Below are positions 4,544 through 57,783 of a DNA stretch of 64,000 nt, piece by piece. How positions within the stretch are numbered: the stretch's first letter is position 1; each line of letters opens with the position of its first letter. A model generated the notes under the pieces. The model was given only the letters and a program-made list of their open reading frames with translations. It was not told the origin of the DNA and ran no database searches. The DNA lies in NCBI GenBank assembly GCA_009823395.1, contig CM020514.1, positions 7,152,466-7,216,465 of the forward strand. Direction: 5' to 3'. The DNA is from Thamnaconus septentrionalis (lineage: Eukaryota; Chordata; Actinopteri; Tetraodontiformes; Monacanthidae). The position numbers and the translations under genes were made by a program.

Positions 4544-4659
4544 TCACACGGAGACAAAGACGTCCACGTAGAGGCGGTCGTACGACTCCCTGAAGAAGAG
4601 GATGAGGACCAGGCTGAAGAGGCAGGAGCCGGTGAGGCACCAGTTCAGCCAAGACAGAT
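4544..4659 (-). CDS. slc49a4: slc49a4 exon 9 (C-terminus and stop)
   Basis: 116 nt ending with TGA (4546-4544). It encodes [20 protein letters not shown] then [17 protein letters not shown], the conserved C-terminal tail of SLC49A4. The acceptor is CATTCAG. Confidence 0.96.
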
Positions 4660-10600: not shown

Positions 10601-13193
10601 AAGCGGAAGCTGTCGAGTGATGCAAGACGTGCCGATAGGTTAAACCATTGGTGGGATCAATAATTCCAAAATATCCCTTGATGCACAATGATTTGACACG
10701 TTCATTACATGGATGAATTCATTCCTTGGGAAACAAATGAGGATACAGAGCCTGCTTGTTTGTTGTTTTTTTTACGCACCATCTCTAGTGCCTCTTCACA
10801 GCCAATCGACACGTGGAGAAGCAAGACGTGAATGACGGACAACACTTTGTGCAAGAGGCCTCTTTTCAGCTGCACCGTTAGATTAACTGAAACAAAGCTG
10901 CACTACAGGTGCTACTATACACGCGGTTTATGATAACACGTTGTTTTAATGTGCTTTTTACAATCAAAAGGGAAAACCAACAGATCTCTCCGGACAAAGG
11001 AAAATTGCTCCAGTATGAAAAAACCTTGAGCAGACCCAGACGGTCCTGAGCCACTTCACCATGCAAATTGGCCGCGTGCGCTAAGTTTTCCCCGGAGATT
11101 CATTTTAAGCCGCTGGCGCATTTCGTCAACGTTCTTCAATCCTGCGCGGCACTGTTGCACTGGCTTCAACTTCCATCTACCTACAAATGAAACCTATTAA
11201 AAATGCATTAAATGGAAAAAAACAAAAAAACAAAAAAAAAAACCTGATGGGATCGTGACGGAACTGATGAGTAAACAGATGGAAAAGCTGAACACACAGC
11301 AAGCTGACCCTCCCACCCCCAGCCCTGAGATTTCTCTGAGGGCGGAATAAAAAGAAGGAGGGAAAAAAACCTTCCTGTTTGTTGCATATGTATGTGGGTA
11401 GGTGTTGGGGAAATGTTGCTGTGTCACTGGCTGCCCGGGTCAGACAAGAATCATACCAACCAGCGCCGGCGTGACAAGCCAGAAGGCAGAACAAGATGCA
11501 GCTGTCAGGCAGCGAGCTTCCAGTCGTCTCCGGGCAATCAGTGGGGAATCAGCAGGGGGGAGGAGGAGGAGGAGGAGGAGGAGGAGGAGGATCATGTGTG
11601 AATAGTTATAAAGATTGAAAGTGGCTCTGTTCTTCTTCTCCTTCTTCTTCTTGAATAAGAGCGGCAATTAAATGTTTTTCAAAATCTTCTTCTTCTCCTT
11701 CTTCTTCTTCTCCTTCTTCGATGCGGTCACTCTTGTCTCGGGGCGGGTTAATGAAGCCGCGCAGGACAGGCGTGTTGTGATTTTTGCCTTCACGCTGAAG
11801 CACCGCAGGCAGCAGGAGAGAACCTGACGGCATCTCTCGACGGATGATATGAATTCAGTCAAACAAACCGTCGGGCAGCTGACTGAGAGATAAATCGGCG
11901 GCTAAATTGCAGCCCCCACCCCTTTTCTTTCATTCTCTCTTTCGTCTCTTTGTGCTCAACGTTTCAGTTTCACCGCAACCCAATTTTCCCTCGACGTCCA
12001 CATTTTATCTGCAGCTTCTGCGGTGCCGGGGATTGATTTTTTTTTTTTTTTTTTTTTTTTTTGGGCAAACAATGGCGGCCTCAGCCGCGCGGGTTGCGCA
12101 GGAGCTTCTCAAGGAATTCACACTTTGTCATTGACGGTAATAAGAAGTTAAAAAAAAAAGAAGACACATTTTCGACGCCGCAAGTCGTGGCGGGCATGCT
12201 AAAAAGGATCGGGCAGGCGCCATTATGAATCGGTTATCACAGGTATATATAAGTTTTCGGAGTGTAGCTGCAGGAAGCCCATAATGTGCTCGCTGCTGTG
12301 GCAGAGGGCGAGGTGTGCGTCGCACGCGCACCAGCGGAAGCGTCTTATATTGAGCGTCGCAATCTTATTATATTCGTCTGCGTGAACATGAAAAAAAAAG
12401 CCCAGACTCGCCATATAAAATGTCAAAGTCAAAAAAACCCAGATACAAATCATGCGGAAGTTTCAGAAGGAAGTATTTGATGTCGAGAATACAAACAAAT
12501 AAAGGCCCGAGGCCGCCGCCGACTCACCTGAGCAGTAGAAGGAGAGGAAGACGAGCAGGAGGCCCATGAAGAGGTTCTGCAGGAAAGTGACCACCCCGCA
12601 GGTGATGCCTTCAGGGACCGGGTAGACCGTCTCGATGAAGAGCTCGAAGAATATCGGCACGCTGCTGTTGATGAAGATGCCCAGCAGGATGCAGGACGTG
12701 TAGAGGATGGCTGCAAAGTCAGAGGCAAAGCGAAGAAGAAAAAACGAAGATCAGTTTGAGGAGACGCGTTAAGAGTTTGGTGGCATCGGTAAAAGTTAGC
12801 GAAACATACTTCTTTCTCTTCTGCTTTAACAGTGGGAACTACGCAGTCTGCACCGCAGCTTAATTCTCAGCTTTTACGCCACGTTCAAATCTAATTCCTG
12901 ACCCGCTGATGCTCTCCAGGTAAACATCGCGTCTCGTCGGGCCTCAGCGGAGGCTAAAAATTGATGCCGTCCACATTGTTGGCTGTCGCCCGTTTAATTT
13001 AGCAGATGAAGTGCATCCCGACGGAACCGCTGTATACACGAGTGAATCCAATTTCATCTTCACATTCGAAACCCATATTCGGGATTGGATGTGTGCAATT
13101 CAATTTGCTTGCGCCATTTGATGCTACTTGCCCTCATCAAGTGTCTATGTGCGTGAGACATTTAGACTTGTGGGGAAAATTAGGAAAACAAGT

Positions 13194-13235
<42 letters not shown>

Positions 13236-16200
13236 AGAGCTGGGAGAGCGTCGGGTCAGCTGGCAGTTCCAGCCTCGGCTTTGGTCCCTTGGCAGAGGCC
13301 TTGAGGTAAAGTGGATGAACGGGGGAGATTAAGCCATCACCTCCAGAGCATCACTGCGCCCTCCATCTCCCTCATCACTGCCGACGGGTCCAAAATGAGC
13401 TCCCCATTAGCCCGACCGTCCCCCTAACTGCGAGGCCTCCCAGGGCCCTCCGCCGTCCGCCCGCCTTGATGGCCGAGCCGATGCGACGGGGAACCTCGGA
13501 GCCACTCGAGCCCGCCGGCTTGAAGACGTCCCTCGGCCGCTGCTCATCTTTATTTAAGCGCCGGTGGAGACGCTCATATCAAGCACTGAGAGCGCAGCTC
13601 TGCATCCGTCCTCAGAGTGATTGAATCAGGCTACGTGTTGGGGCATTTTTGTTGAAGGTTGTGTGCGGCGAGGTCGACGGCGGAGGACAACACACATGTG
13701 GCTCGGCTGCATTAAGCTTCATGTAGGAAACTCCTCTTTTCGGAACTTAATTTTTTTTTTTTTTATGTTATACAGGACTCCACCAGAGGACAATAAATTA
13801 AATTACACAATGTGATTACTTATCCAAGGAAAACTGATGCTTTGTCTGACTTTCCACAAGGAAAGGAAGGGGATTAAGGCTGCGTTCAGACTGCAGGCAA
13901 ATCAGATTCCTTCTCAAATCCGGTTTAAAGGGCTGACTGTCCACACTGCTTTTAGCAAGTGTTGTTGCTGTTGTGTGTTGTGCTGTTCAGACTGAGATGC
14001 ATCTTTCCAAATGCCATTTGAAACTACCTCCCGAAGGTGGTTTCAACACGTTTTGCAAAAATCGGATTTCATGTGATTTGTGACTGTTCAGACTACAAAA
14101 GAGCCATCCGGTTTCAATCTGGATGGGCTGAAAATCGGATTTTGGCAGTCTGAACGTGGCCTAAAGACAAGGCCATCTCATATCACAAAGGGCTGACTTC
14201 CACGCTGACAGGCTTGAAGCTCATGCAATTTTTTGACAACTCTCGTAAAATAAATTTGGCATAATTGGGACTATTTGAACATTTCTTCTCTGATCAGTGG
14301 TCCAAACATCTGTGTCGAGCGAAACCCCAATTCTAGTTTTGCAGAATATTTTCCCAATATGTTTCCTACTGAACTAGACGCGACTCTGAAAACCGACCGC
14401 GACAGTCGCGGAATCCCACCGTCGTTGTTTTCATCTGCCTGCTGGTTTTAAGCGCTGATGCTTTTTTCCATTTCATCTGTATTGACTCAGAACCCTGACG
14501 TTAACATGTCTGATCGTGAGAGAAAAAAAAAAAGGGCAAGAGTGATGATAGCATATCTACAGCGAACAGTGAAATACACAGTGCGCGGTGGATTATGAAG
14601 CAAAACATTTGCCTGGGAACTTTAGTGGAGCGGAAAATTAAAGTGAGATAACTTTGAACTGATGTTGCAAGCTCCGAGTATTGATTCCCCGTCTGCCTTA
14701 TTTATTTTTATTTTTTTTCAAACCAGTAATTCACATTTCCACCACACTACATATTGGCGAAATGGATATTACCGACCATCCCGAGCTGGGAGGGAGCTTC
14801 TCCCGGAGCGTCACGCCAGCCGCCTCCGCTTGTGCGGAGCGCCAGGTGGAGGAACGGACGCGGCAGCGGCCTGGCTGCCGCCGGCTGCCAGCTCCTGGGG
14901 ATAAGAGGACGCGAGACGGCCGGCGGGGCCGCGCCAAGGCCTGGAGAATGATGATGGATGATGATGACTGGCAATCAGCGGCTGTGAGCGGCACCCTTAG
15001 CACGCTTATTGGTTTGGCTAAAGGGAGAGGCAGCTGATTCCAGTCAGACGTCCCTAATGGGTTTATCTACAAATGGATTGGCTCAGCTGAAAAAGTGCCA
15101 AAGCGAGAATTTGGAGAGTGAGGTGTTCAGGCTCAGAGGACTCTTTTTTTTTCCTTTTTTTCGCAGAGGAATAAAAAAAAAACTAAAAAACAACTTTGGT
15201 TCACAGTGATGATTCCAAAAATAATTTGTGAGCGAAGCTGTCAAAGTCAAAACACCAGGGGAGATAACAGGCTGCAGATGTCTTTGAGTCATGGGATTGA
15301 CTGCGCGCTGAAAAGGCATAACATACCATGCTGTTTGTTGTATACCAAACAAAAAAATAATATTTACCAGCATCTAACTGTCAGAAACCAATTTTCCACA
15401 AATTTTTCTTTTTTGGAATTTTGATTAGAAGGAATCGATTTCCCTGAGGGAAAGAATCCCTGGTTATATTTGTGATTTGCTGCGGTCCTTCAGCTTCTTG
15501 TAATCTCGCTTTAGTTTGTTCAGGATTGAACAAGTTCGCTTCAACATATGGATACATTTAGCTCCGCCAGCTTGCCAGCTATTCCTCTATACACTTGATC
15601 ATGTCTGCAGGAGGCTGCACGTGCGCTCCACTGAGCAGCGTTCTGCAGCACACACACACAAGTACTAGGTACTTCCATTTGGGAAAATTTGGGGATTATT
15701 TCTTACAAAATCCCAGCTAAACGATGAAAGTGGGAAGGGAGCCTAATGAAGGTATGAGAAAACTATGGCCTGGGGGCCATTTGCTGCCCATTAAGCTTTT
15801 TAATCCAGCCAGCCAAACTTAGAAATTATATTCATAATAAGTAAGTCATAAAATAGCCGTATTTTATCCATGTTTTCAGATCAATACCGTGAAGCTTCAA
15901 AGACACAGATTTTGTTGTAACTTCTTGTTTGTTCATTTTCAATAGACATTAAAGCACCTGTTGTCTCCATATCCCATGATATATTTATTTCTCTTATGAG
16001 GTGGGTCACCAAAACATCACATTTTAGAACCCATTGTGGCCCTCCAGTCAAAAAGTTTGCCCAGCCCTGGGCTAATGTGACCTTACATGCCAGTGCGCCG
16101 CTGTGTACTGACCTGCTGTCGTGGGGAGGTGCGTGAACTGGCTCAGGCAGGTGAGCGTGAACCACGTGGAGGCCAGCGAGGCTCCCGCCAGCATCAGCAC

Positions 16201-19200
16201 CAGGATCAGCTTCAGCATCCCGCGAATGGAGTCGGCAAACCTTGGGAGTGAGGCCAGAGGGAGGACGTCAGCTCAGGGGAAAACCGCCGAAGGCAGAGCT
16301 ATAAAATCTATTTAGGCCGCCGATTCCGAAACACGGCCGGGTGAACGGCGGACGCGTTTGCCGAGGTGCGCGAAGACAGCTGCTTCGCAAACAAGAGGCA
16401 ACCCTCCACGCAAGCATCCGCGTCCCGGGAGACTCATGTCGCCGTCTATTACTGGAGACGCGCGTCGCCCGCCGAGCGAGCCAGGATCATTCCCATCATC
16501 CTCCTTGTTTTTCGGGGGGCGGGGAGGTTTTCCCCTCTGCGCACACACTCGTCATTACGCGAGCAGACCCTATTTTCCCAGGCTTTGATTCGATTTATCC
16601 CAACAGCTTAAAGATCTGGCGTGTGAAGGTTTTTAAGGAAGCCCTGCCTGACAGCGCGTTTCGTAGGCGGGCTTCCTGAAAGAATAGCGATGCAAAATGG
16701 CAGCTAACAAGACCCTTGTTGCTCTATGTATATTCTTATATATCGTTAGCCTACTAGCATAATTGCCTAAGTCATTTTTTGGCCAAATTGTGATACCTGC
16801 CTAACTTTACCAATGTGCTAGCTGAAAAATGTGTTTTTTCGTGTTTTCCGAAAACGTTCAAATATGACTTAGGCGGCTATGCTATTAGGCTAACGATATA
16901 CGAGAACCATTCTGAGGGTAGAAACACCAAATGACTTTCATTGTACTGCGAGTTTTCACTTTTATTAATGTATTTATGCGCAGTATGTTAAGCTTTTACC
17001 AGTACAAAAGTCATAAATGAAGCTAAATTTGACACCCTGGACCTCTAAACAGGCGGGTTGGAGACGGAGGAACGGGCCCGTTTTTTTCCCCCGAAGCCTC
17101 TCAAGCGACCGCGGCTTCTCTTTGTGAGCGCTCGCTGTTCATCGACTCCGCCGCCGCTCCTCTGGGTGTTGGCGTGTTTGCTCGGGAGAGATTAGATGAA
17201 GTTACAGAAGCCTGGAGCAAAGACAGACACTAATTACTTTTGTTTTCCGCTGTTCACAGACAAGACACTTAGGGGAAGGGGAGGCAAGAACGCGCCGCCG
17301 GGTTTTTGGACGATAACCTTAAAGCGAGACTAGAGCAGGAGGGTCGGATGTGTCGGATTAGGCCGGCTGGGTTACGCGAGCTACGATTGGCTGCATGGGT
17401 AAGACATTGGTTTAACTCTGAGAAAATAAAGCATTTCAGCAAATAAGCATGGCAAATGTAAAACTGTGAGCACAACATTGACATGAACAGCCATTTAACC
17501 TCACATCAAGTTGTTTTTACATCAGGATTTCTTTCAGATTCACAGCTGTTTTAAGTTATGTGAAAAACTTTGGGGAACTGAACCCCTTAGCTGCTGATTG
17601 GTCTGTTCCGACTCCCAACAGGCGGAAAACAGTTCAGGAGATTCTTAAGGGGGATTTGGAGAGAATTACCACCTAAAATCTCGCCCATACAGCTGCCCTG
17701 CTTGATTGATAAGTTGTCAATCACGGCGACATCAACGGCATAGTTCAAAAGGCTTAAGCTAACTCTCTCTCTTCTTTTCTTTTTTTTTTAGCCAAACGCC
17801 TGGACTAAAAACGAGCTGCCGCAAATCTCCTCCAAACGGGCGCTTGTCACCACGCGAACACGTGTCGCTCTTTTGCTCGGAGCCGGTCCGTCAAATCCGT
17901 CACACCCCTCTGCTGCTGCTGCTGCTGCTGCTGACTGGCTCACTTCCACTGAGCCTTCGACCAGCCCCGGGTGAGAGAAATGGAACCCTTCCCCTTGCAC
18001 CCCATCAAACGGTCAGTCCCCTTTGCCGTGAGGATCACAGGCCACTTCTCTGCTTCCACTCCAGTGTGGGGAAAAAAAAAAAAAAAAAACTACATAAGCA
18101 GCTTATTTCCTGCTCCAAATCTGATGGACCCCTGACTCCGCTTGATAAACAGCGCCGATTTGCACTGCGGCACGTGAGCAGGGTCTGAATTTCGGGCACT
18201 GCTCTTGTACAAACACCACGATGCCGTTCGATATATTTTTTTCTCTCTCTCCGATTTAACCTGGGAGGTTTTTGCAACGACACTTTTCAATAAAACCTTG
18301 AACCAACAGAGGGGAACCTGACGAGGCAACGGCAGAATAAAAAGGCCAATATTTTCACCCTGCCATTAAGATCGTCGCAGTCAGATGCCATTTTCCGCTC
18401 CGCCTGCAACGGGGTGGGAGGGATGAAATATCGCCGTCCATATGATAGCGTCACATGGGAGCCGTCCGTTGTCGTTTATGATCCAAGAGCCGGCAGCCCA
18501 GGAGGAGCTACAGGTGGACGGCACAAAAGGCCGATTAGTATTCCGCCACAGATTGTTCCCGTTTTGCGAAGATAACAAATTTAGACGGCAGATGGCTGAC
18601 GGACAGTTGCGTCCTCGCCATCTCGATTGTTAGTATCGTCTGGCTCCAAACCTTTGTGATGAGAGGCAGAATTAGCTGCTTCCCCAACCACCACCACCAA
18701 CAGCTTCGCCTTTTAACCTCGGAAAATAACGAGGAACAATTGTTGGTCATTCTTTTCACCATCCTGAAAAAAAAAAGGCGGTGAGGAAAACAAAACAGAA
18801 GGCGGAAGCTGACGTCCAGACTGTCTCCACACAATTGGATGATTGTCAGACGATTCCCCGTGATGGGCGCCGCCGCGCCTTGGAGCGTCAGCGGCTAATT
18901 GAACGGGCCGCGCTAACCCCCGTGAATTCAAATGTCAACTCGGCGAGATAGCAGACGGGGTTGGGGGGGAGGCTGGAATATTTTTAGGCAGGCGGTTTAA
19001 AGGCCAAACGCTGATCCCGTGAGAGAGTCGGCTGTGCCCATAAAATACAAGCTGTAAAATGCAACGCCGCGTCACCTTCAGCATTTAAAATAAAAAAAAG
19101 CATTTAGCAGGTGCCATTTTCTGCTCCGCGCAGCAAACCTGTGCTCGTTATTGATATTGTGCCCACCGAGGGAAAAAGAGACATGAACATCCTGAGGGGG

Positions 19201-22200: not shown

Positions 22201-25200
22201 GTTGCTGTTGCTGTGGTTTAACCTTTCCAACGAGACTTTTTAACACCAGACAAAAAAAAAAAAAAAAAAATCATCATGTACTACTCCCCCACTGTATGTG
22301 GGATGTAATTTTCGTGCTTTTTACCAACTTGGCATGTAGAAGGCATTAAAAGAAAAAACTATGTGTGACCAAAGCCTGTGGGGTGAGGGCTTCGGCGGTA
22401 ACTCACCTGGCCAGCGCCACTCCAAATATGCAGCCGCCGATGGTCGACCAGAAGCCAATCCAGCCCGCGCCGACCTGTGCATTTGGGGGGCAATGGAGGG
22501 GAAGGTGAAAAAGAAGAGCAGGGAAGGACAGAGGAGGGGAGAGAGGAGAGGAGGTTACTGGTGTTTAAAATGCAGTCCGTGACTGTGAGGACAGAGTCGG
22601 ACAAAGAGCAGCCGCTAAGTGTCTGAGGTCCGCCGAGGCCTGTCAATCACCGGCTCCGCTAAATTGCTGTAGGAGACGCTGCGTGTGTGTGTGTGTGTGT
22701 GTACATGCGTGAAAGTGTTTTTTCCTGCCTTATTTACGACGAAGATGCATACGCAAAGCCTTTTCAGTCAGGAGGAAGGACGCCACGGCCGCGGCCGCGG
22801 GCAGCGGGATCGATACGGAGCAAAGTGCTACTCGCTCAACCGCGGCCGCTCAACCTCGCGCAGCCAATAGGAAGGCAGACGAAGGTGTTTGGTTGCCGTC
22901 AATCTCCACCGCACACGTCGACAACATAAATTTGTGTCGACGCGTCGGGTTATTGTTTTTGTAAATTACAGAATGTTAAAATCACACTCCTGCCGCTACA
23001 GTGCAGTACTGAGCGCTGAGGGTGGCAGTGTTGCATCCTGCGAAAAAACAAAGAAGAACGGCTTCTTCTCTGAAAACGCTCGAAAAAAGTTCAAACTTCG
23101 ACTCATCGAAAAAAAATAATCGATAGACTAGTTAACAACAGAAATAATCGTTGTAGTTGCAGACCTCCTCTGAAACAGGATACTATTGTCTTTCCCCCTT
23201 CATCACACTCTGCAGCGAACGGTCATAAGAGTCCACAACCGAGAAAAGTGGACTATTGGAATTATTAAACGGTAAAAGTCGCATCTAGGAGGCAACAAAC
23301 GCGTCGGAGAGTCATTATACGCGATCGAAACTCAGCGACCCTGCTGCTTGGGACGAGGACGACATTGAAAGTTCACGAGAAAAAGACGTTTGGAAGTTTT
23401 TTTTTTGCGTTGCAGTAACGAACAGTGTCCGAAAAAGAAAACCCAGAGTCTCTTTGTGCATTCATATTATTTAAACAGTTTGCATTACGTTCCATGAGAA
23501 TGAAAATGTAAATGCGATGCCGCCCTTTCGGACAATGATAAGCATTATTAAAAAAATAAATAAAAGAAAAAAGTGCAAAGTGTAGCCACCTTGTTTCTAT
23601 CCCCTTCCAAAGATGTGGACGGTCAAAAAAAAACAACAACCACCAATTCCAGGAGGACAGTATTTGAAATGAGCAGTTTGCTGGAGAGCAAAAGTGGTAG
23701 TTGGTAACCATGCAAGGCTACTCTACTGTCGTCTCTGGTGTAAAATATTTTTTTTTCACAGCATACAATACAATCAAAAGGCTTTGGCCAGATAATCAAT
23801 AAGAACAATCGCAATTTTAAACAAAAACCAAGAAAAACACAGTAAAAACAAATGAGTATCCTCTGCTCCACATTTATATCATAACCCACTAGGGAGAGGG
23901 CATTCCAAAAAAAAAAAAAGAAAGAAAAAGAAAAATTGGTTGCATTAAAGCAAAAGGAAATGGCAAGACTAAAAATGCTGCGCTGAAGAAAAGCGCCAGA
24001 TGCTTTCAGCTCCGGCCAGGCAGCCAGCTGCTGCGTCTGCAGGGCTGAAGGCATTTAGTGGCTGTTAAATGCTCACTTAAACTGGATAAAATTGAACTTC
24101 TCCACTTGAGGCCCGGGCTCATTTACACATTTTAACGGAAGGAGTCAAATCCACCGGGTTAAAACCGTGCCCCGCACGGGCGCCGCCGAGGTGGCCTTTG
24201 TGTGTGCGTGTGTGTGTGTGTGCGTGCGACGTCTTCCTCTTCATAGAACCAGAGTCAATTTCAGGTTCGCTGAACTCTTGAAACCCCCCCCGCCCTCCCG
24301 CCCGGCGTGGCAGCTGGAAGCGGAAGACCCAGCTCGGGGGCGGAGCGCTTTTTTCGATTTCCGCAGGGTTGGTTAGGTTCATTTGCCCCTCCCCCCCCCG
24401 ACCCCTCCTCCCTCCTCCCACCACCCTGCACCCGGCCGCTGTCGGTGGAATCGTTTTAACAACTCTGGCGAGCTTCAGACGGGACCTCTGCCACGAATTA
24501 GTGCCAGTTCACGTTCAGGTTGGCCGCGCCAGGCGGCAGCTGACCCACATGTTCGCCTCAGCACGCACGGCTAGCCGTGGATAAAAAGTTGACGAAGGAG
24601 AGAAACGAGGTCACAGACGTATGTGACGGAAGGGTGGCCGGGGGCCGGACGGAGGCGGGCTTCTTCGTAAAGACACTGACGGGGCCATCGATGGCGATAA
24701 AAACAGGAGCGTGCGGCGTCCAAAAAAAAAAAGAAACTTGGTGCCGCGAGAGCGAGCTTAGAAAGCGCCTAAGTAGGACAAAGACGGTGGGAGGAAAAGT
24801 AGGGGGCGGGAACGCGCTTCACATTTTAGCGTTTGTGTAAAATGCTAATTTCGTCTCCCCGAGCCGCGTCTTCCTGCTTCCCGCGTCGGGGATCTGACGG
24901 AGGCAACAAAGCTCGCGAGCTCGAGCCCACCGCGGCTTCTCAGGCGAGTTTACGAAAAGGGAGGAGACTTTAAGCGTTTGTGTCTTTTTCTTTTTCTTCT
25001 CCTTTAATCTTACTTCTAACCTAACTTGGAGTACAAAGACCCTGTCGGCGGGAGAAACAAGGAGGCGCTTCAGAAGCGGGAGCTCCTCGCCCTCGCAGCG
25101 TGTTTGGATGCTCGGCGCAAAGTTTTAGCACCCGCGGGAGGAGAAGGAGGGGGCGGGGGGGCGGGTGGGTGCTAAACCTGTAATGTAGCTCAGCTCGTTG

Positions 25201-28200
25201 CAGCACACTTTCCTTCTCGACTCAGACGCGTGAACCAGGACGGATAAAAGCGGCGCGGGGCGAGGGGGGGGGGAAACTTTCGAGAACAAACGGAAACCCA
25301 AGAACAATTCGGTGAGCGAAAACTGCCGCCGCTGCCGCCTCCTCCGTGTGATCTCGTCTCAAGCAGCGCCCATCTGATGGCAACCTTGAAGAGACGCCCT
25401 CCACCCCCCACCCCCACCCCACGCTGCCACCACCACCACGACTACACACACCGGGGGGATGATGTCACGCTGAGACCTTTGCGAACGCTCTCAGTCCCAC
25501 TCAGCTCGTCCTCGTCCCCTTGGTCGGCGCGCCTCCGACTGCAGTCGGCGGTAAATTGCAATTGATTTACCTCCACCCATCCCCCACCTCCCCCCACACA
25601 CACACACACACACACACACGCACATCCTTCACAAAAAGACAGGACGAGGAGCTCAGAAGAGGTTCGATGAGTGTGACACACACAGAAAAGACGGCGGATT
25701 GTTTTTTCGGCTCCTTGATTTCCCCGTCAAACGCCCGCCCGCCCGCTCGCTCGCACTCTGTGGGCGCTCAAATTTTGAAGTGGGTTTGCAGGAATTTAAT
25801 AAAGGCCCCGGCAGAAAGAAAAGGTTCAGCTGCCTCGGAGAGTGGCGTTGAACGCTGAACGCCCCACGCCGTCGAGCAGCAGCCTCGAGGTTAATTATCG
25901 CGCAGGCACGAAGCGGTTGCAGAGTTTTTCGGGGTCCATTTTGGCCGCCGCGAACAGCGGAGGTTGGATGTTGAACAGCGTGAGAGGCGACTTGATGGCT
26001 ACTTCAGGGTTTAAAAAAAACAGTGGGGATTCACGGCAGGAAGACGTTGCACTTGCGCTACAGAGAAAGGCAAAGAGACGTCGGCCAATCCCCCCCGAGT
26101 GGGTCATCGATGCTGAGGAATGTGCCGCATGTACTGAGGAAGGACACTGCAGACTGCAGGGCCACACTGCCACCAGTATCGGGCGACGTTTGAAAAGCGA
26201 GCTTGCACTAAACCCGCATGTAATTCTAAGTTGACGGTCGTTCGTATGAGTTACAGGTTGTTTTTCTTCTTTCATCTATTATACACATCCTCCTGCTAAT
26301 AGTTTTGCAGCTTCTCATAATAGACAAAGTCTCTGTGTTGCGGGTTTGTGCATGTGCGTGTGTGTGTGTGTGTGACGCATCCGGCCTACCTGGCTGACTT
26401 TGGCCGGCGTGAGGATCATGTCGAGGACCCCCGTCCAGCCTGCGATCACTCCTGTTGGGACTGCGTAGGCCATCGCGATCATCAGGAACCTCACATTACT
26501 GCGTGAAAAAAGAAAAAGCCAAATGTTTAAAATAAATAATTCAAATGAGCGCCGAATAATCCATATTCAGTTCACGACTTCCTTTCCTCTCCCTAAACTG
26601 GAGTTTTTTGGGGGCTAATTGGATCTAATGCGCCATTAGTCCTTTTTTACTCATGGACTCAACAGGACAGCTGGACACACAACCCTTTTTAATATTTTGT
26701 AGAGGCAAATGATGACGTATGTAACCGACAGTGCTTTCATTTGTCCACATTACGTTGAGAGGTTTTTCAAAGTTTAGGTGTTTCCATTACCTGTTTTTTA
26801 TCAAGAACATCCCTGCAAATGTAGAGCAGAACTGACACAAATTTCAGATTTTACTGTCATTTCTACGTCGAGCTGGACACGTGTGCTACACTCCATGTCT
26901 ACAATTGCCTGCTCTTGACTGTCGAGGCTTTTATTTTTTATAGCAGGCCTCGGCCACAAAGATTAAAAAGACCTCTTAAGAGTTTCAAAGCACACCAATC
27001 GCTTAACGCAGCAGTTTGCTTCAATCAATATTGAAAGTACAGAAGGATGTGATATCATCAATGTACATTTATGATATCACATCTTTTCACAGAGAGAGTA
27101 AATGGAAGACATTCAGCCAATTGAGTCTACAATGTGTGGGGGGAAAAAAAAACAACACGTGTCGGAATCTACAGAATCTAGTCCCATTTCTGTCTGGATG
27201 ATGTACTTAGACATTAAATGTAATGTAATGATCAGTTGTTTACTTGGCAGTGAATCGCCTGTTTAAATAAAAAAAATTTAAAAAATGACAGCGCTGCTAA
27301 ATGGAGCAGTTGTCACTGTTTGCGGCACGTCGTGGGAGAGGGAGGGAGGAGATTTAATGCTTGCTGGCTGAAGTAAAAAAAACAAACAAATGTTGTGTAA
27401 ATGAGACTGCCGTTTAATTCGTCCGGCGGACAAAATTGGATCGCATCTGCAGCTCGCAATCGCTTTTCAGGCGCCGCGGTGTCACGCCGGAGGACGCCAG
27501 CGGCGGCGTTCCGGCTTGACAAACGACCGGGCTGATTGTCGACTCCGTCAACTGACCGCTCCGCTCGCCGCCGTGCCGTTGATGAATGACGGCGCTCGGT
27601 CCGAGCGAAGCACGAGGGCCGCGGAATTAAGATCATCGTTAGCGGCTTCAAAAACTGAACTAGATTTATCGTGTCTTTCGGGCATAATTCAAGTCTGCTG
27701 ATATGTCGCAGGTTCACGATACTCTGCAAATGACAATAGAAATGTGTCTAGTTGTGCATGCGCGACACGTACAAACGCGCTTGTGCACACACGGCGAGCG
27801 CCTGTTCAAAATACAGCAGGCCGCAACCCTCCAATCACATGCAAAACCAATCGCAATCACGCCCAACGCCGACGCTTAATTGCCTCCGCCCGGCGAGGTG
27901 GCGTGCTGATGAGGAGCGGCGCCAACTCCTCAACCCACAACAGTGTGACTGGAATCACAAGCCGCCTGACAGACAACGACGAGAGCAGCGGGGCAGACCA
28001 TGGAGACACCGTCTGTTTATTTTTTCCCCCTTTTTTTTCCTTTGTTTTTCGGACGCCGTTTAACCCCCGCAATGTATTCTGCCTCCGCCTTGTGCATCGT
28101 AAAACTCTTGGGAAACAGTTCCGGGGCCTGTTTTGTTTATCTCTGCTGTGATTATATTAAAAAAAAAAAGTGAATTCAAATGTACACAGGGAAATAAGTA

Positions 28201-33234: not shown

Positions 33235-36200
33235 TGTGCTTATACCTCAGAAGCCGGCAGATGCTGGTCCTGTAACTGAGCCTCTGGCTGGCGCGGCCAC
33301 GCTGGGAGGCAGCGGGGGGCGGGACGGGAAGTACAGCAGGACGGCGGCAAAGAGGAGGGCGACTGCAGCCAACTCTGCAGGCGGAGAGGACACGACAAAG
33401 ATTCACAACAAGCCCGATCGATGCGGCGCGACGTAAGGCGGCGGCTAACACGTTCGACACGAGTCCCTTCTGGCTACGGATGGAATCGCAGGACGTTGTT
33501 CGGAAAAAAACGAAGAAAAAAAAAAAGAACTCGGGGCAAACAAAAAGACAAGAGATTCAATTTGTCCCGTCATGCAATGTTTTCTCACGAGAATTCTTTT
33601 TTTTAATTTTCGGAAGCCCCGTTAGGCACGACCGTGTCGACTATCAACTTTTCGGAGATAACCGGCGGTTCGGCGGAAAAAAACTCCCACAATCCCATCA
33701 ACAGATGCTATTTATCTCCCTCGACAGCGCCGACAAGATGTCAAGATGATGTGCTATCGATCGCCCCCCCCCGACTCCCCGCGCGCCCTTGGCGGGTTTC
33801 TGCGCGCCGCTCATACCTGCATACATAACCAGCTGGATGCTGTCTCGTATGGAGCTGTCGGACATGGTCGGCGCCTCCGCCCCCGCCGCCTTGGGGGCCG
33901 TCGCCGTGCTGTTGGGGGCCGGCACGGCCAGGGGGCCGACCAGGAAGGAGGCGGCGCCCCCCAGGTAGGAGAAGAGCGTGGCCAGGGCCGTGGCCGTGGC
34001 CCTCTGGTCGGGGGCGAACCACGTGGTGGAGAGGTAGGGGCCGGCGCTCATGATGGTGGGGCCGGCCAAGCCGTTGAGGAACTGGCCTCCGTGTATGAAC
34101 CTGCAGAGAGCGAAGAGAGGAAATGAAATCACGCGCCTCCCGCTGGGAGGGAAAAGTGGCGCGAGCTGCTGTGCTGCACTCTCAACCTTGAAATGACTCT
34201 CGCGTTACACGAGCGGAGACTCCTGCGGCGCGGAGACGACGCTTTGAGGATCCGGCACCTCAGCGGGTCCACGTTTGCGACGCGGCCGAATCGCCGACAC
34301 TTCAAGTCTGAAATCTTTCTGATCCACTGTCCGTATCCATCTCGGAAAGATTAGATCCGATCAGATTGCTTTCCGTATGTCTGAGTAACTCCATCCCGTA
34401 AGCAGACGTGACAACACACACGTTCAAAACCTTGGAGTCACTGACTCATTTCTTTATTTAACTCTGCCATAACCATCTTCATGAAATAATCTATTGGAAT
34501 GTTCTAAGAACCTTACTAGTGCTCGAAAATCAGCAAGGATGTGCTGAACTCATTATGGGATGGCTTTGAGAATTTGTTGCTTTGAATGTTTAATTGAATG
34601 TGATTTTAGAGAATGAATCAAGGGTGCACTATGTGGCCATTGTTCCAGAAGTTGAAAGATGGGCAGCTGTTTTGCTGCTAAACAGACTGACAGGAAGTTG
34701 TTTGTCAGAACAGATGGCTCGTCCAATCACCTTTCAAGTTTTGATTGTCTCACCTTTCCAAATGTTTTTTGGGCTTTTTTTTTTTTAATCTCCCAGACAG
34801 ATAGAGGAAATTAATTAAATTGATTTTTTTTCTGATTGTGTATTTGAAAAACAATAGCGTTTGAACATTGAGGCTGCCATCCTTGTTCAAAGACCTTTTT
34901 TTTTCCCCCCAAGATCAGCAGCTCTTAGCACTGAGAACATTTCAGCCTGTTTGCCTTGTTTTTCTTCCAACCTTCTGCAGTTCCATTTGCACATGACAGA
35001 AATGAAAAACGACGGAAAAGTTGCAAGTCAGTTTTCAAGTGCTTTTGTCAGCTATGTCGCTTTTCACCTCGTCGGGAGTCTTGACTGAAAGGAACATTAT
35101 GGTTTCTTTTTTTTTTAGGACTTTGGATGCACTAGCCTTTCTCCCTGTTATTTCTTCAGCTCCCCAAAAACAGGAAGTAATGACCAGAGGCAATAACTTC
35201 CGAACAATGATGAATTTGCGGTAACAGTCAAAGGCTACGGAGTCATCTCGGGGGACGTGAGCGATAACCCGCTCGAGCTGCGGTCCAAGTCGCTGCGTAC
35301 AATCTCAGCGGCGCACCTGCAGACTAATCTGTTGGAGATGTACTCTCAGATGTCCCCTGATGCTATCGGACCTCGCAGCGCCTCTCTTTCCCCCCCACCC
35401 TCCAGAAGTGTCTGACACAGACAGCTGGCCCCCAGAGACGAGCCCCGCGGCTGATTGTCTCCAGGCTCGGCCGGGGCGTCGTTCGTCTGAGAGCCGTCTC
35501 AGCACGGGGCAGCCAGATACAGCGGGGAGGCAGGAGAGGCGGGGGCGGGGGAGGAGAGGGGCAGCGAGTTCACTCAAGTCTGCTCTTCACTATTTAAGGT
35601 CTTTGGAAATCTCGGTAGATTAGCAAAGTCAAAGTAAAAAAAAAAAGAAGGTATCATATTAGACCCCTTTTTTTTTTTTTACATCTTTGTCTTTCATTCT
35701 GGATCGCAGTAAAGCAGTACTTCATGAGCAAACATTCAAAAAAAAATCACCTGTGAACAGTATATTTAGCCCACTGTTTACAGCCTCCATCCAAAACTCC
35801 TGGTTTTACCTACCTTCCAGCTAAAACTGATGCCTTGCTGGATCTTTTGACATATTTGGAAAGGGACAAGAACAAGCTAAGGGTGTTGTCACTAACTTGG
35901 GAAAGGCGTCAATGGGGTATAAGTGCCTTTTGTGACATCACAAAGGGATAATATGCAGCGTTGCATGGTCTTATTCACGTTTTCAGCACAGGGGCAAAGG
36001 TTGGACGTTTCCCAGTTCAGTGAGACTACTGACATGTATAAAAAAAAGGCAGATTTTGCATAAACATTGTACTTGGTATCAAAGAACCAATGGGATTCAG
36101 TGCTAGCAGTATAAAAAAAAAACATGCAGCACCTTTTAACTAAACACATAAAAAGTACCACTTTCATCCTACTCTTTGCAGTTTTCACACTTTTCAACTC

Positions 36201-42200: not shown

Positions 42201-45200
42201 CCTCACTTTCTTTATGTCTGAGCTCTTTAACTTGCTAATTCTGAAGGCAATGCCATAAATTACGGTAACCTCGTTAGACAGGGGGAGGTTGGCAAGCATT
42301 TCTGCAGCCCTTAAAGTCTACCCACGGCCCGTGGCAGCTGGTCGGAGAATATTCCCGATAAATCAAATTATGGAAATTCTCCTAAGTCGCACAACTGTGC
42401 TGGATATCACAAGACCCTCCTGGAAGAAGCCTCCATAATGATCAAAGAAGAGTCCTACCATCGTTTGAGTTTCAAGTCAGCCAGCGGGATGCTCCTCAAA
42501 GCCGCCCCGAGCAGCATGAAGAGTCCGGAGAGCAGGAGGGACGACCGCAGACCTGCAAGACCCAAAAGAATAAATGAATAAAGACAGGTGAAGGAAGATC
42601 AGAGGAACAAACGAGGACAGATGAGGAATGTTGGAGGTGAGAAGGGAAAAATAGTCAACTGCACGTTGAACCAACGGTCACGAAAATACAAAATAAAAGC
42701 ATTCTGCAGTGTTTGAAGTTACTACTGGCTCTAATATTCTTTGCATAAAGCCAAATGCAACTCAACCCCATTATAATGCCATTATAATTTAAAGTATATA
42801 GTTTGCTCCAATTCAGTGACACATATAGAAGATATTTGAGGCCTTTTTCCCGCTGAGCCGAAGAGAACGGCACCACACGACAAGGTTCCACGGGCCTCTC
42901 CAACGTTCAACATCTGACCGTCGGAAGAAAACAAGTCCAATAGAGGAAGATGTTTACCAAAAGACATGCAGCTGTGGGAATTAGCACTTTGTGATGTCAC
43001 AAGGGGAGCTAAAGCCCCTCCCAGGAGTCTTTTTTTCCTAAATATGATAAAGAAAAACAGCTCTGAGAATGCCAGACATTATAAGACATGATGTGGCTCG
43101 TTCAACCAACTTGTATAAATGCCTGTCAGCAACAACCGAAATGTGACCAGCACAGGACAAAGCCTCTTTCATTGTCGCTCTTGGTTTCATCCACATGATG
43201 TCCAAGAGTGGAAAGTCCAGCTGCTTCCCTCCTTCCTCTTGTCTCTTTCTCACTTTCCATCGCGATAAAGTGTCAAAGCAAGCTAGGAAAATACGAAACC
43301 GTTGATGTGACAGAACTAGTATATGTCTGAGGCTGACACATCGGAAAATTCTGAAAAATAAGAAGAAAATATCTGCTGAGCTACACTGGCTGGGTTTACA
43401 TGGAGCCCAATATTCCATAATACATTCGAGTTAGAAGCACAAACTGAATAATAAAAATGCTCCATATAAACAAATCAATCAGGATAAACAAAGCCTAAAC
43501 CGAATGGAATTTCATTGGCTTTCACAGGGGTAGAATATTCCTTTTCCTGATCAAAAGTAAAATTATTATTATTATATTTATCATATTTATCATGTAAGCG
43601 GTGAAACAGAAAGTTGTCCGACTGCATTCTTTATGCGCATGCTGTGTCGTGACGTAAATGCACAGTGACGCACTCTGGGGGCTTCCACAGAATTAGCTGT
43701 TTAATAGAACCTCACTGAGCTGAACATTAACACACACTACTTAGATGAAAGGAAAACAAGAAAAATAGTGAACTGAAAGCCGGCTGTATGCCTTCTTTGG
43801 TACTTCCAGCAGCAGTGCCTTGGTATCAAGCTGTTTCTTGCATAAAGGTGCAACAACAATTGCAACTACTGTGCTGATCAGACGATAAACGTTGATCTAT
43901 GATCAATTACGTGATGTTTTCATCAATCTGTACAGCTGTTGAACAGCTGTTCTGATTAAATGTAGTGGCACCAGTTCGGAGGGATCACGTCACATGTAAA
44001 TAGTCGACCGCAAATGTTCAATCAGAATGGAAAAAAACAAAGAAAGTTTGCATAGTAAACCTGGCTACTGATGTAAATACTTGTAACACAGGTGAGTCCT
44101 CAGGGACTGGGTCATCTGAGGCGTGTGAGGCCGTAGTGCAAGCTTAGCAGTGCTCCACTGATTCTGGCTCCCCTTCACAGGCGGCTAACAGTTTGAGTTC
44201 AGCCAGTTCACTCGGGCATTCATAAAACCCTCCACGGATCCGCTCCACCTCTGACTTATCATGCAGTTCTTTCCTCTTCCCGTGTCGTGACTTTACGCTG
44301 ATGGGTTTCGGCAGCAACTTCCTTTTCTTCTTTACGCCTGTATAAAAAAAGCCCTTCGCTCTGCACTTGAAAACCGGCCACTTAGGGGCTCTTTTCGAAA
44401 GACGAACTGGCGCTACAAAACATTAAACGCAAGACCAGGGAAAGCCAGCGACCAGCCTCGGCTGATCGAGGTGGCTGGTGGCTGTAAAGAGATTACAGTT
44501 GTGTAACCTCGCACTTAAAAGGGTGAATCAGCCCTCTTATCTGTGGCATCAGCAGACAATGTGAAAGTGCGACACGTCCTAAAAAAAGATATAGGCTAAT
44601 TGCTCCTGCGCTAAGGTGTAAGAGAAACTGCCCCCGATACTCTCCTGGATGGCAACTGCTGTGGTTGTTTTCCATCAGCCGCGTGCAGCGTCGGGGAGTT
44701 GGGGTCCCAGAGGGAAAGTCGAGCATTTGCTTCAACCCGTGCAGAGCAAGGGTGTGCGTGTGTGTGGGTGTGTGCGTGACAGAAAGAGAGAGGGAGGGAG
44801 GGATGTCACGGTGCTCACAATGCGGCTGAGCAAATAAAATAAAAATGTGCGAGAGCTGCATCTCAATGAGTGATTTAGAGGAAGTTGAGCAACTTCCATG
44901 CATATGAAAGGAGAACACACGGCTGGGTTCAATCCGCTTAATATGTGACCTCACGTAGGAAGTCACGGAAAGTTGGAGTCAGGATCACAAGACGAGTTGT
45001 GTAATTTCTTGGCAAGCCTGTGCGTGATGATGTGGGTTCATCACCAACATCGCCTCGTTGCTTTTTTTGTTGTTGTTGTTGTATGTGTGTGATGCCGTTG
45101 ACGTTGCTCTGGCTGTTTTGTCCGGCCAAGTAGAGTGAGAGAGTGGGTCAGGTGACGCAGAGGAACTGGTTTGGCGAGAGGCGCCGACTACACAGCGCAG

Positions 45201-46544
45201 CTTAGGGTCGAGAACCCTTCAGCTGGAGAAGGCACTTTGGGGAAAACCTTGTGTTGTTTTTAGTCCGGGGAGTGTTGCTCTTTCGGAGGAGAGAAGCCTT
45301 AAGAGTCATCCTGAGTGAGCACATAATCACTTGAATGGGTTCAACCTTAACTGCAAAATTGCGAACGGAGAAAGGCCATCGCGGAAAAGGGTGGCATTGA
45401 AGGAAAAAAATCACTGAAACCATCTGTGTGGATGCTCCACAGTAAATATCAACAATACATCTGTCATTTCATGTTGCACCAAAAAGGATGGCAAAGCATA
45501 GGAACACCTGCTTGAAACATTTCACAGTGAAATAAGAGACAGATGAGATCAGGATTCCAAACAGCACAGTAGGGATGCAAATTATCGATTAATGCATTAA
45601 TCATTAGTTAACTGACTTCAACGATCGGTTAACGATTAATTGACAAGCGTTAAGTTCCTGAGAACCTAAATTTCACAATAAAAAATGTTTAAGGAACACA
45701 TTATTTAACCATTGAATAATGTTGAGGGTCCGGAACAGTAAAAACACCCTAAACGTTTATCCTCTGACTTTAAGTTGACTTCTAATGGGTTACATTTCAA
45801 CTTTTTCTTTTAAAAAAAGTTGCTTAAAAGTAACTTGTTCTAGATATGTAATGAATTGCTCGTTCCTGCCTGTTATAATGATATTAACTACCCGTGTAAA
45901 AAATGTTCAATTCATTGCGATTCATTTAATTTCATTTAATCTATTAAATTCTTAATCGACAATTAATGGCTAATTGATTAATTAAGGTTCTTATTATTAC
46001 ATCGTCAAAAAGAATTGAGTACATGTGATTGTATAGATTTTTTTTCTATGTGTTGTTATGATAATGGACATTTTTATATTTTGTCGAGTTTCATCTCACT
46101 TTGTAAGCACTTTGGAAACCTTGTCTTTGTTAAACAGGGCTATACAAACAATATCCATTGTGTTGGACATCATCTTCGTGGTTGACCGGGGGTGAAAACG
46201 ACGAGACAAACACCACAGACGAACATGGGACACAGTGTACCAAACTCACCCTTTTTGTCCATCAGCCACATGAACAGCAGCCAGGGAATGAAGCCAATCG
46301 GGCCCCACAGCACCAACACGGCAATATCAGACTTGGAGAAACCAAACGCTCGAACGGCCGAGTTCTGAATGGGACCCCAGAAGTTCCACACCATTCCCTG
46401 CATGAACCCCAGCAGGGAAAACAAGCAAAGAACCAGCCATCTTCTCCGGTACACTCGGCTGTTGACTGGCTGGTCGTTGGTTGTCGGACGAGTTGGCGTT
46501 AGAAGAGGCTCCCTTTCGGCTTCGGTGCTCGGACCGGCACCCAT
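4544..46544 (-). CDS. slc49a4: SLC49A4 (DIRC2) lysosomal MFS transporter, 9 coding exons, with an apparent 1-nt frameshift in exon 4
   Basis: Major facilitator superfamily member of the SLC49 family. The human protein is a lysosomal membrane protein reported to export pyridoxine with protons. Coding exons run 46544-46250, 42552-42459, 34100-33817, 33374-33246, 26498-26390, 22474-22407, 16240-16113, 12710-12528 and 4659-4544, all with GT-AG borders. Family landmarks seen are the N-terminal acidic dileucine EREPLL (Leu14-Leu15, a lysosomal sorting signal type), WGPIQNSA after TM1, [54 protein letters not shown] and the C-terminal [12 protein letters not shown]. The product would be about 468 residues (human 478, from memory) with about 12 membrane helices. 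Exon 4 is one base short, so the sequence as given shifts frame after about residue 252 and stops after about 266 residues. The start is ATG 46544 in a good Kozak context; the in-frame TTG codon 54 nt upstream is not a start. It is divergent from hspbap1. Identity is very secure; integrity is uncertain. Confidence 0.95.
5938..6230. mobile_element. Harbinger-like MITE, copy 1
   Basis: The ends are GGCTGTGTTCAAACTGCAGG and GGCAGTCGGAACGTGGCC, an inverted repeat. They are flanked by TAA on both sides (5935-5937, 6231-6233), as expected for PIF/Harbinger insertion. Internally it shares GGGCTGACTGTCCACACTG and AAAATCGGATTTTGGC with the copy at 13878-14161. Confidence 0.75.
11560..11591. repeat. 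(GGA)n microsatellite
   Basis: Ten near-perfect GGA triplets, followed 45 bp later by a long TTC/CTT tract on the same strand (11632-11725). The two tracts are complementary purine and pyrimidine runs. Confidence 0.9.
11632..11725. repeat. TTC/CTT-rich microsatellite region
   Basis: Interrupted polypyrimidine tract of TTC and CTT triplets in intron 8 of slc49a4. Confidence 0.85.
12528..12710 (-). CDS. slc49a4: slc49a4 exon 8
   Basis: 183 nt. It encodes [20 protein letters not shown], then [20 protein letters not shown] and [12 protein letters not shown], almost identical to human. The acceptor is TTGCAG and the donor is GTGAGT. Confidence 0.96.
13197..13234. repeat. (TG)19 microsatellite
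   Basis: Uninterrupted TG dinucleotides in intron 7 of slc49a4. Confidence 0.95.
13878..14161. mobile_element. Harbinger-like MITE, copy 2
   Basis: It lies in intron 7 of slc49a4. The ends GGCTGCGTTCAGACTGCAGG and GGCAGTCTGAACGTGGCC form a good inverted repeat. TAA flanks both ends (13875-13877, 14162-14164). It is the same family as 5938-6230 and in the same orientation. Confidence 0.8.
15750..16070. mobile_element. probable hAT-like MITE relic
   Basis: The left part reads AACTATGGCCTGGGGGCCAT; the right end reads AAAGTTTGCCCAGCCCTGG. The outer flanks share CTAATG (before the left end and after the right end), close to an 8-bp duplication. The interior is A/T-rich with no coding potential. 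Confidence 0.45.
16113..16240 (-). CDS. slc49a4: slc49a4 exon 7
   Basis: 128 nt. It encodes [20 protein letters not shown] then [19 protein letters not shown], matching human [13 protein letters not shown] and [16 protein letters not shown]. The acceptor is CCCAAG and the donor is GTCAGT. Confidence 0.95.
16739..16901. repeat. imperfect inverted repeat (about 36-bp arms, about 90-nt loop)
   Basis: The arm 16739-16774 (TATATCGTTAGCCTACTAGC and onward to GCCTAAGTCA) is complementary to 16865-16901 (TGACTTAGGC onward to GGCTAACGATATAC) with few mismatches. A transcript from either strand could fold here. It may be a short MITE whose ends I could not define. Confidence 0.75.
17910..17933. repeat. 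(CTG)8 trinucleotide repeat
   Basis: Eight perfect CTG units in intron 6 of slc49a4; CAG on the transcribed minus strand. Confidence 0.95.
20307..20732 (+). mobile_element. solo LTR of an LTR retrotransposon (probably Gypsy-like), 426 bp
   Basis: It starts TGTGACGGCC and ends AGTCGTGACA (TG...CA). CTCT, or ACTCT if the last A is shared, flanks both sides (20303-20306, 20733-20736). Inside, in order, are a TATA-like CCTATAAAGCC near 20438 and AATAAA near 20656. This is the promoter-then-poly(A) layout of an LTR. No internal gag/pol or second LTR is adjacent, so it is a recombined solo copy. The family assignment is an inference. Confidence 0.8.
22407..22474 (-). CDS. slc49a4: slc49a4 exon 6
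   Basis: 68 nt. It encodes [14 protein letters not shown] and CIFGVALA, matching the human [13 protein letters not shown] segment. The acceptor is TGCACAG and the donor is GTGAGT. Confidence 0.95.
22475..26389 (-). other. slc49a4: slc49a4 intron 5
   Basis: 3.9 kb. It contains TG/CA tracts (22681-22702, 24197-24222, 25597-25620, and 26359-26374 beside exon 5), GC-rich stretches around 24280-24420 and 25130-25440, and A/T runs. No exon is recognised. Confidence 0.6.
26390..26498 (-). CDS. slc49a4: slc49a4 exon 5
   Basis: 109 nt, phases 1 and 0. It encodes [20 protein letters not shown] then [16 protein letters not shown], close to human RFLMIALAYAIP and GVLDLILTPAHVSQ. The acceptor is CACGCAG and the donor is GTAGGC. 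It continues in the family frame, not in the shifted frame of exon 4. Confidence 0.95.
30413..31767. mobile_element. hAT-like inverted-repeat structure around a GC-rich insert
   Basis: The outer ends CAAAGGTGGGAAGTAACC and GTTAATTCCCACCTCTG are inverted repeats. A second inverted pair lies inside. Near 30583-30622 the sequence runs ACACAAGTATCAGTACTTTT then TACAGAATATGA. Near 31124-31165 the complement of that stretch occurs. Between these inner arms is about 490 bp of GC-richer sequence with no AGTACTT words. I found no clean target duplication. Confidence 0.6.
32187..32216. repeat. (CTG)10 trinucleotide repeat
   Basis: Ten perfect CTG units in intron 4 of slc49a4; CAG on the transcribed strand. 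Confidence 0.95.
32275..32600 (-). mobile_element. tRNA-derived SINE-like element
   Basis: The minus strand contains GGCGGTTCAAATCCCGC, a good RNA polymerase III B box. It then reads TGTCCTTGGGCAAGACGCTT and the fish-typical tail AATGTAAAGTGCTTTGAGTG with CTATATAAATGCAAT, followed by A/T-rich ATT repeats. The same tail occurs on the plus strand at 53940-54000. Confidence 0.65.
33200..33236. repeat. (TG)n microsatellite beside slc49a4 exon 4
   Basis: About 15 TG units followed by CGCGTG, ending 10 bp from the donor end of the frameshifted exon 4. The repeat could have complicated assembly here. Confidence 0.9.
33246..33374 (-). CDS. slc49a4: slc49a4 exon 4, carrying a 1-nt deletion relative to the family frame
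   Basis: 129 nt between a good acceptor (CTGCAG) and a donor (GTATAA). The first 27 codons ([10 protein letters not shown]..., [13 protein letters not shown]) match human SLC49A4. The next match ([15 protein letters not shown]) lies in the neighbouring frame. Phase 2 at both ends with 42 codons requires 130 nt. The break falls at GCCGCGCCAGCC on the minus strand, about 33291-33296. Read as given, 14 unrelated residues follow and then TGA at 33249-33247. Confidence 0.9.
33375..33816 (-). other. slc49a4: slc49a4 intron 3
   Basis: 442 bp, the shortest intron of the gene. Nothing recognisable besides A/T runs near 33505-33535. Confidence 0.7.
33817..34100 (-). CDS. slc49a4: slc49a4 exon 3 (HGGQ...RATATA core)
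   Basis: 284 nt encoding [20 protein letters not shown] through LVMYA. It includes the strongly conserved [14 protein letters not shown] and GPLAVPAPN segments. The acceptor is CTGCAG and the donor is GTATGA. An Ala/Pro-rich luminal loop after APN is about six residues longer than human. Confidence 0.95.
35760..35950. repeat. relic of the GTGACATCAC palindrome repeat family
   Basis: It shares TTTAGCCCACTGTTTACAGC, AAAACTGATGCC and TTTTGTGACATCACAAAGGG with the copies at 36842-37346. Confidence 0.65.
36842..37346. repeat. direct duplication of a palindrome-bearing repeat unit (2 x about 194 bp, 311-bp period)
   Basis: 36842-37035 and 37153-37346 are about 90% alike by eye. Both start GTAAAGCTGTCAGTT, share CACAGCCTGGAGTTTCAGCT or near forms and CTTTCACATGTGTGGAAGG, and end CCTTTGTGACATCACAAAG. 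The family recurs across the window. Confidence 0.8.
40050..40430 (-). mobile_element. 3' fragment of a LINE (L2/Rex-like)
   Basis: On the minus strand a degraded frame reads [12 protein letters not shown], stop, [20 protein letters not shown] then SITNKTSEI. This resembles the C-terminal end of fish LINE reverse transcriptases. It is followed by a short tail with GGGGGACAATAAAATCTAAT and repeated AATCTAAT-like units. Family placement is tentative. Confidence 0.5.
40664..40890 (+). mobile_element. degenerate tRNA-derived SINE
   Basis: It contains CTGGCGCAGTGGTAATCGCT (A-box region) and GCAGGTTTGATTCAC (B-box-like). It then has the common teleost SINE body: TCTCCGGGTACTCAGGCTAC, GAATGTGAGTGCGACAGGTT and GGCCCTGCGATAAACTGACC. 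Confidence 0.7.
42459..42552 (-). CDS. slc49a4: slc49a4 exon 2
   Basis: 94 nt, phases 2 and 2. It encodes [20 protein letters not shown] then [10 protein letters not shown], matching the human stretch that ends in IPISDLILKR. The acceptor is TTGCAG and the donor is GTAGGA. The codon spanning exons 2 and 3 reads Trp (TG+G) where human has Arg. Confidence 0.93.
42553..46249 (-). other. slc49a4: slc49a4 intron 1
   Basis: 3.7 kb. It contains a palindrome-family relic (about 42890-43010), (TG)n near 44752-44778, a GTT-rich tract near 45069-45081 and the MITE copy 45572-45990. No exon is recognised. Confidence 0.6.
45572..45990 (+). mobile_element. MITE (TAGGGATGCAA family), copy 1
   Basis: It starts TAGGGATGCAAATTATCGAT and shares AAAAGTAACTTGTT, CCCGTGTAAAAAATGTTCAA, TTCATTGCGA and TTCTTAATCGACAATTAAT with the opposite-strand copy at 60487-60779. 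The far end was not defined precisely. Confidence 0.65.
46250..46544 (-). CDS. slc49a4: slc49a4 exon 1 (start codon, TM1-TM2)
   Basis: 295 nt: 98 codons plus one base. ATG at 46544-46542 follows GCTGCC and precedes G. It encodes [15 protein letters not shown], with the dileucine at residues 14-15 as in human, then VYRRRWLVL and the first helix, WGPIQNSA and LWGPIGF. The donor GTGAGT lies immediately below 46250. Confidence 0.95.

Positions 46545-54013: not shown

Positions 54014-54055
<42 letters not shown>

Positions 54056-57712: not shown

Positions 57713-57783
<71 letters not shown>

What the first reader, a model, noticed from the sequence alone, without database searches (positions are those of the whole stretch)
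33246..33374. Apparent 1-nt deletion in slc49a4 exon 4
The acceptor-to-donor span is 129 nt. The flanking exon phases (2 and 2), and the 42 codons counted from the remembered human protein, require 130. The translated homology switches frame exactly at GCCGCGCCAGCC (about 33291-33296), and the shifted frame hits TGA at the end of the exon. All other exon joins in the three genes are perfect. If real, it truncates this lysosomal transporter after about 266 residues and would probably trigger mRNA decay. If not, it marks an assembly error in a GC-rich site next to a (TG)n tract. Alternative acceptors within the exon do not restore the frame.
Basis: partly seen in the sequence, partly recalled or inferred. 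Interest (0 to 1): 0.75.

Follow-up and report, generated by a model that had tools for sequence, protein, structure and literature searches.

The report
One-base assembly error in fish gene
A lysosomal vitamin-transporter gene in a filefish genome appears broken by one missing base, but apparently same-species RNA-derived sequence reads straight through, so the break is most likely a sequencing or assembly slip and the finding is ordinary.

Summary
On the minus strand, slc49a4 exon 4 (33374-33246) is 129 nt where its phases need 130; the coding sequence is one base short and stops after 266 residues. All 120 homologues listed keep the uninterrupted spacing. P0002, from unnamed contigs of at most 3,379 nt, equals the window's protein at 421 of 421 residues around the break but is intact across it. 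Those codons span about 42 kb and eight introns here, so the contigs are inferred to be spliced RNA. One genomic locus was found, and the shifted tail is in none of 145 fetched proteins. Assembly size resembles a published Nanopore filefish assembly (474.15 against 474.31 Mb). One of 32 connexin loci here is also frame-broken, in the other direction. A heterozygous null allele in the sequenced fish is not excluded. Two side claims need correcting: a tandem acceptor does restore the downstream frame, and the missing base cannot be identified from protein.

The parts
33246..33374 (-). slc49a4 exon 4, 129 nt, one base short of its phases
   Evidence: acceptor ctccgcctgcag, donor gtataagc; phases and length
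33286..33300 (-). site of the frame change, minus-strand GTGGCCGCGCCAGCC
   Evidence: homology changes frame here
33247..33249 (-). premature TGA, one base before the exon 4 donor
46250..46544 (-). slc49a4 exon 1 (start codon at 46544)
42459..42552 (-). slc49a4 exon 2
33817..34100 (-). slc49a4 exon 3
26390..26498 (-). slc49a4 exon 5
22407..22474 (-). slc49a4 exon 6
16113..16240 (-). slc49a4 exon 7
12528..12710 (-). slc49a4 exon 8
4544..4659 (-). slc49a4 exon 9 (coding part, with the normal stop)

Best explanation
slc49a4 is an ordinary, working nine-exon gene of a filefish. The single base absent from exon 4 is an error of the consensus sequence: a deletion left in a GC-rich stretch (exon 4 is 68% GC) of what is probably a Nanopore-based assembly. 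Shown: the missing base, the resulting stop, an intact and otherwise identical protein from short unnamed contigs, and a single matching locus in the genome. Inferred: that those contigs are transcripts of the same species, that the assembly is the published Nanopore one, and that the error arose in base calling or polishing.
For: P0002 is identical to the window's protein at 205/205 residues before and 216/216 after the break, and is uninterrupted at it. The tool reports 9 contigs for it, longest 3,379 nt, while the same codons span about 42 kb here (46403 to 4547), so the contigs must be spliced or from an intronless copy. Only one locus in the genome matches, nine pieces, all on contig C14, and the exon 4 DNA was found once, so no second copy explains the intact sequence. 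A search with the 266-residue product listed 120 of 332 hits, and none of 145 proteins fetched holds the shifted tail. The rest of the gene shows 8 good splice junctions and no other lesion. Assembly size is 474.15 Mb against 474.31 Mb listed for the filefish assembly of Bian et al. 2020, whose title names Oxford Nanopore PromethION. Passages of PMC8011154 describe systematic Nanopore errors as mainly indels in homopolymers that shift reading frames. One of 32 counted connexin loci of this assembly also has a frame break in an otherwise open gene.
Against: No raw reads or transcript DNA could be seen, only a translated protein, which begins at residue 48 of the window's protein. The break is not inside a homopolymer in the sequence as given, while the paper passages read stress homopolymers. 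The connexin break runs the other way (one extra or two missing bases) and is not itself proven an error. A GPCR scan of the same assembly listed no in-frame stop in its rows (154 matches reported, some not listed), although only 147 of 899 candidates were scored, which favours intact genes.
Confidence: 0.85

Rival explanations
1. A real null allele that the sequenced fish carried, probably heterozygous, and that the collapsed assembly happened to pick. The mRNA from it would be cut by nonsense-mediated decay, so RNA contigs would show mostly the intact allele.
For: The stop lies upstream of five exon junctions, so decay could hide it from RNA data (inference). Everything else in the gene is intact, as expected of a young allele.
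Against: The shifted tail is in none of 145 fetched proteins (both searches were capped lists). From general knowledge, not from a call, consensus indels in assemblies of this type are commoner than null alleles of conserved genes.
Confidence: 0.11
2. A fixed loss of slc49a4 in the window's species, with the intact RNA contigs coming from a very close sister species.
Against: 421 of 421 residues are identical, while another filefish, Nelusetta (P0001), differs at 17 of 468. No other lesion and no weakened splice dinucleotide is seen in the nine exons. All 120 listed homologues are intact here.
Confidence: 0.03
3. The 129-nt exon is real and tolerated because splicing restores the frame, for example through the tandem acceptor two bases into exon 4 or a GT/GC donor inside the exon.
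For: Starting the exon at 33372 gives an open 467-aa ORF; an upstream acceptor (start 33444) gives 491 aa; donors ending the exon at 33326, 33335 (GT) and 33293, 33311, 33314, 33338 (GC) give 437-452 aa.
Against: The acceptor options scramble the first part of exon 4 and the donor options remove part of it. P0002 has the standard residues throughout exon 4. Of 145 fetched proteins 144 have the standard stretch at the break and one lacks it.
Confidence: 0.01

Closest known systems
SLC49A4 (DIRC2), lysosomal H+-driven pyridoxine exporter of the SLC49 family
   Same: Translation matches fish slc49a4 along its whole length (90% to Nelusetta ayraudi over a query lacking exon 2); N-terminal acidic dileucine sequence EREPLL at residues 10-15
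   Different: As written in the window it stops after 266 of 468 residues
Residual indel errors that fragment genes in Nanopore assemblies (PMC8011154: passages seen; PMC12007338: search listing only)
   Same: A small indel that shifts the frame of an otherwise intact conserved gene
   Different: Those texts concern microbial or small genomes and stress homopolymers; this site is GC-rich but not a homopolymer as given
FLVCR1/FLVCR2 (SLC49A1/A2; the SLC49 numbers are recalled), solved structures
   Same: Related by sequence, E 4.2e-19 at best
   Different: A separate branch: at most 72 bits, against up to 908 bits for slc49a4 proteins

Membership tests
SLC49A4 (DIRC2) | Full-length homology to annotated slc49a4 proteins of fish | tested here: met
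   120 of 347 hits listed, up to 908 bits; most rows that bear a name are called solute carrier family 49 member 4 or disrupted in renal carcinoma 2; some are hypothetical or unnamed, and one (P0069) is called ETS translocation variant 6/7
SLC49A4 (DIRC2) | Major facilitator superfamily domain | tested here: met
   PF07690, 34.4 bits against a cut-off of 33.4, on the joined translation with X at the break and without exon 2
SLC49A4 (DIRC2) | N-terminal dileucine signal for lysosomal targeting (role from PMC9719028 abstract) | tested here: met
   EREPLL at residues 10-15; L14 is nearly invariant in alignment A1; targeting itself not tested
SLC49A4 (DIRC2) | Open reading frame over all exons | tested here: not met
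   Stop after 266 residues in the sequence as given; open in P0002 over the 421 residues it covers
SLC49A4 (DIRC2) | Pyridoxine transport driven by protons | not testable with these tools
   Needs a cell assay
Gene-breaking assembly error | Independent sequence of the same gene and species lacks the lesion | tested here: met
   P0002, 421/421 residues identical and intact; species inferred, not named
Gene-breaking assembly error | Raw reads disagree with the consensus at the site | not testable with these tools
   No reads on hand
Gene-breaking assembly error | Other breaks of the kind in the same assembly | tested here: inconclusive
   1 of 32 counted connexin loci has a frame break, in the other direction and not itself proven an error; the GPCR list shows none but is biased
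Pseudogene | Further lesions or decayed splice sites | tested here: not met
   8 of 8 junctions with AG and GT, no other stop or indel

The most novel reading that the evidence does not exclude
The deletion is real: a segregating or recently fixed null allele of the lysosomal vitamin B6 exporter in a filefish, hidden from transcript data by mRNA decay. It would be a natural knock-out of DIRC2/SLC49A4.
Probability: 0.13. Interest if true: 0.35.

Novelty: not a real feature. Interest (0 to 1): 0.07.

Why it matters
It matters mainly as a warning: gene annotation on this assembly could call slc49a4 truncated or a pseudogene, and a gene-loss study could count it wrongly. If the deletion were real, it would give a natural animal lacking the lysosomal pyridoxine exporter.

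Tried and rejected
Second gene copy as source of the intact sequence: not found, one locus only (the tool scores only its best candidates). Broken form present in public proteins: the shifted tail is in none of 145 fetched proteins, from lists capped at 120 of 347 and 120 of 332. Shorter slc49a4 proteins of other fish are listed (288 to 327 aa, for example P0122, P0137, P0140, P0142, P0144, P0145), without that tail; why they are short was not followed. Conserved 129-nt exon in relatives: not supported; 119 of 120 by pattern plus P0108 by eye keep the five-residue spacer before RL. Of the 145 proteins, 144 keep it (143 by pattern, P0145 by eye) and one (P0141) lacks the stretch altogether. Rescue by splicing: possible on paper but not seen in P0002. 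Skipping exon 4 also breaks the frame, giving 226 residues. RNA family scan of the window: no match at gathering score. DNA of related fish exons was not sought: by their descriptions the DNA collections open to me hold prokaryotes, viruses and plasmids, and no metagenome scans were allowed.

GPCR family scan as an error-rate yardstick: of little use, because only 147 of 899 candidates were scored and the best-scoring ones are the intact ones. For the connexin count, out of 56 rows, I took the 31 rows that cover at least 200 of 225 profile positions in one frame without a stop, plus the one locus (two rows) split by a frame change. The other 23 rows (short, holding stops, or split with gaps) were left out. 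The gaps were taken as introns; of these only L033 and L034 were read, L035 was fetched but not read, and the rest were not looked at.

Full report
What was checked. The gene lies on the minus strand of the window, from the start codon at 46544 to the stop at 4544, in nine exons; all eight junctions have AG and GT. Exon 4 is 33374-33246, 129 nt. It begins with two bases that finish a codon opened in exon 3 and ends with two bases of a codon finished in exon 5, so its length must be 3n + 1, that is 130 nt for 42 full codons. The joined coding sequence is 1,406 nt instead of 1,407. Translation runs through 252 native residues, then 14 foreign ones, and stops at TGA 33249-33247, one base before the donor.

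Where the frame changes. Before the site the homologous residues end ...PPSVAA, and after it they resume [15 protein letters not shown] one frame over. The change lies within minus-strand GTGGCCGCGCCAGCC (33300-33286). All 120 homologues listed have an uninterrupted stretch here with the same spacing (119 by pattern, P0108 by eye). One search matched 347 proteins and listed 120.

The main comparison. It begins at residue 48 of the window's protein. It equals the window's translation at 205 of 205 residues before the break and 216 of 216 after it, and it is uninterrupted at the break. Nelusetta ayraudi differs at 14 of 252 and 3 of 216 residues. The codons of P0002 are spread over about 42 kb and eight introns in the window, so contigs of 3.4 kb can only be spliced transcripts or an intronless copy. 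No such copy was found: all nine matching pieces lie in this one locus, and the exon 4 DNA was found once. As a check of species identity, hspbap1, the neighbour gene, matches another such protein, P0146, at 454 of 455 residues, with no frame break inside any of the seven exon pieces. That P0002 and P0146 come from the same species as the window is an inference from this identity. Their DNA was not seen.

Search for the broken form. A search with the 266-residue product listed 120 of 332 matches. None of the 145 proteins fetched contains the shifted tail; 144 keep the normal spacing and one (P0141) lacks the stretch.

What the assembly probably is. The window lies in a genome of 474,147,460 bases in 132 contigs. 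A table in PMC11740861 lists a Thamnaconus assembly of 474.31 Mb, citing Bian et al. [quoted passage not shown] The paper itself was not seen. The match of size is suggestive, not proof. Passages of PMC8011154 say that systematic Nanopore errors are often left uncorrected, are mainly indels in homopolymers and shift reading frames. Exon 4 is 68% GC against 46% for the window; the break is not in a homopolymer as the sequence stands.

A rough yardstick. In a scan for connexins, which are mostly single-exon genes (recalled), all 85 candidates of the first look were scored and 56 rows returned. Thirty-one rows cover at least 200 of the 225 profile positions in one frame without a stop. One further locus (C19:13510924-13511575) is split by a frame change in the middle of an otherwise open gene, by one extra base or two missing, the opposite direction to slc49a4. 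So such breaks occur at one in 32 loci of about 0.7 kb, or about one in 20 kb of conserved coding sequence, on a single event. Whether that connexin break is an error or a real lesion was not settled. A GPCR scan listed no in-frame stop, but it scored only 147 of 899 candidates, did not list all of its 154 matches, and favours intact genes.

Splicing alternatives. In fact the AG two bases into the exon does so, giving an open 467-aa frame with 27 scrambled residues. An upstream acceptor (exon starting at 33444) gives 491 aa, and two GT and four GC donors inside the exon give 437-452 aa; no alternative exon 5 acceptor in the range scanned does so (one site changed at a time). P0002 shows the standard residues, so these carry little weight.

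Conclusion. The gene has no second lesion, its splice dinucleotides are normal, and an apparently conspecific, apparently transcript-derived protein is intact. The simplest account is a one-base consensus error. A heterozygous null allele remains possible, because decay of its mRNA could hide it from transcript data; genomic reads would settle it. If it were real, the protein would lose its second half and could hardly export pyridoxine from lysosomes (inference), the function reported for the human protein (PMC9719028, abstract seen).

Noticed in passing
L032 (G000 C19:13510600-13511900), minus strand: A connexin gene is split by a frame change (...YLGHVIH | VVHKENK...; one extra base or two missing), profile positions 1-107 in one frame and 108-225 in another; otherwise open.
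   Followed up: partly
window 47495-55596, plus strand: hspbap1 lies head to head with slc49a4, with 950 bases between the start codons (46544 and 47495), matching P0146 at 454 of 455 residues; the one difference is Ile in P0146 against Thr in the window at residue 42.
   Followed up: partly
window about 57440-58444, minus strand: Exons that look like a peptide transporter of the slc15a1/slc15a2 type, recognised by eye from remembered sequence; not searched.
   Followed up: no
window 33374-33372: Tandem acceptor at exon 4: the second AG, two bases on, would change the frame of the exon if used.
   Followed up: yes
protein search: Several slc49a4 proteins of other fish are listed as short forms of 288 to 327 residues; annotation artefacts or real isoforms was not examined.
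   Followed up: no
literature: A review table (PMC11740861, passage seen) lists the 474.31 Mb assembly under Thamnaconus modestus but cites a paper titled for Thamnaconus septentrionalis.
   Followed up: no
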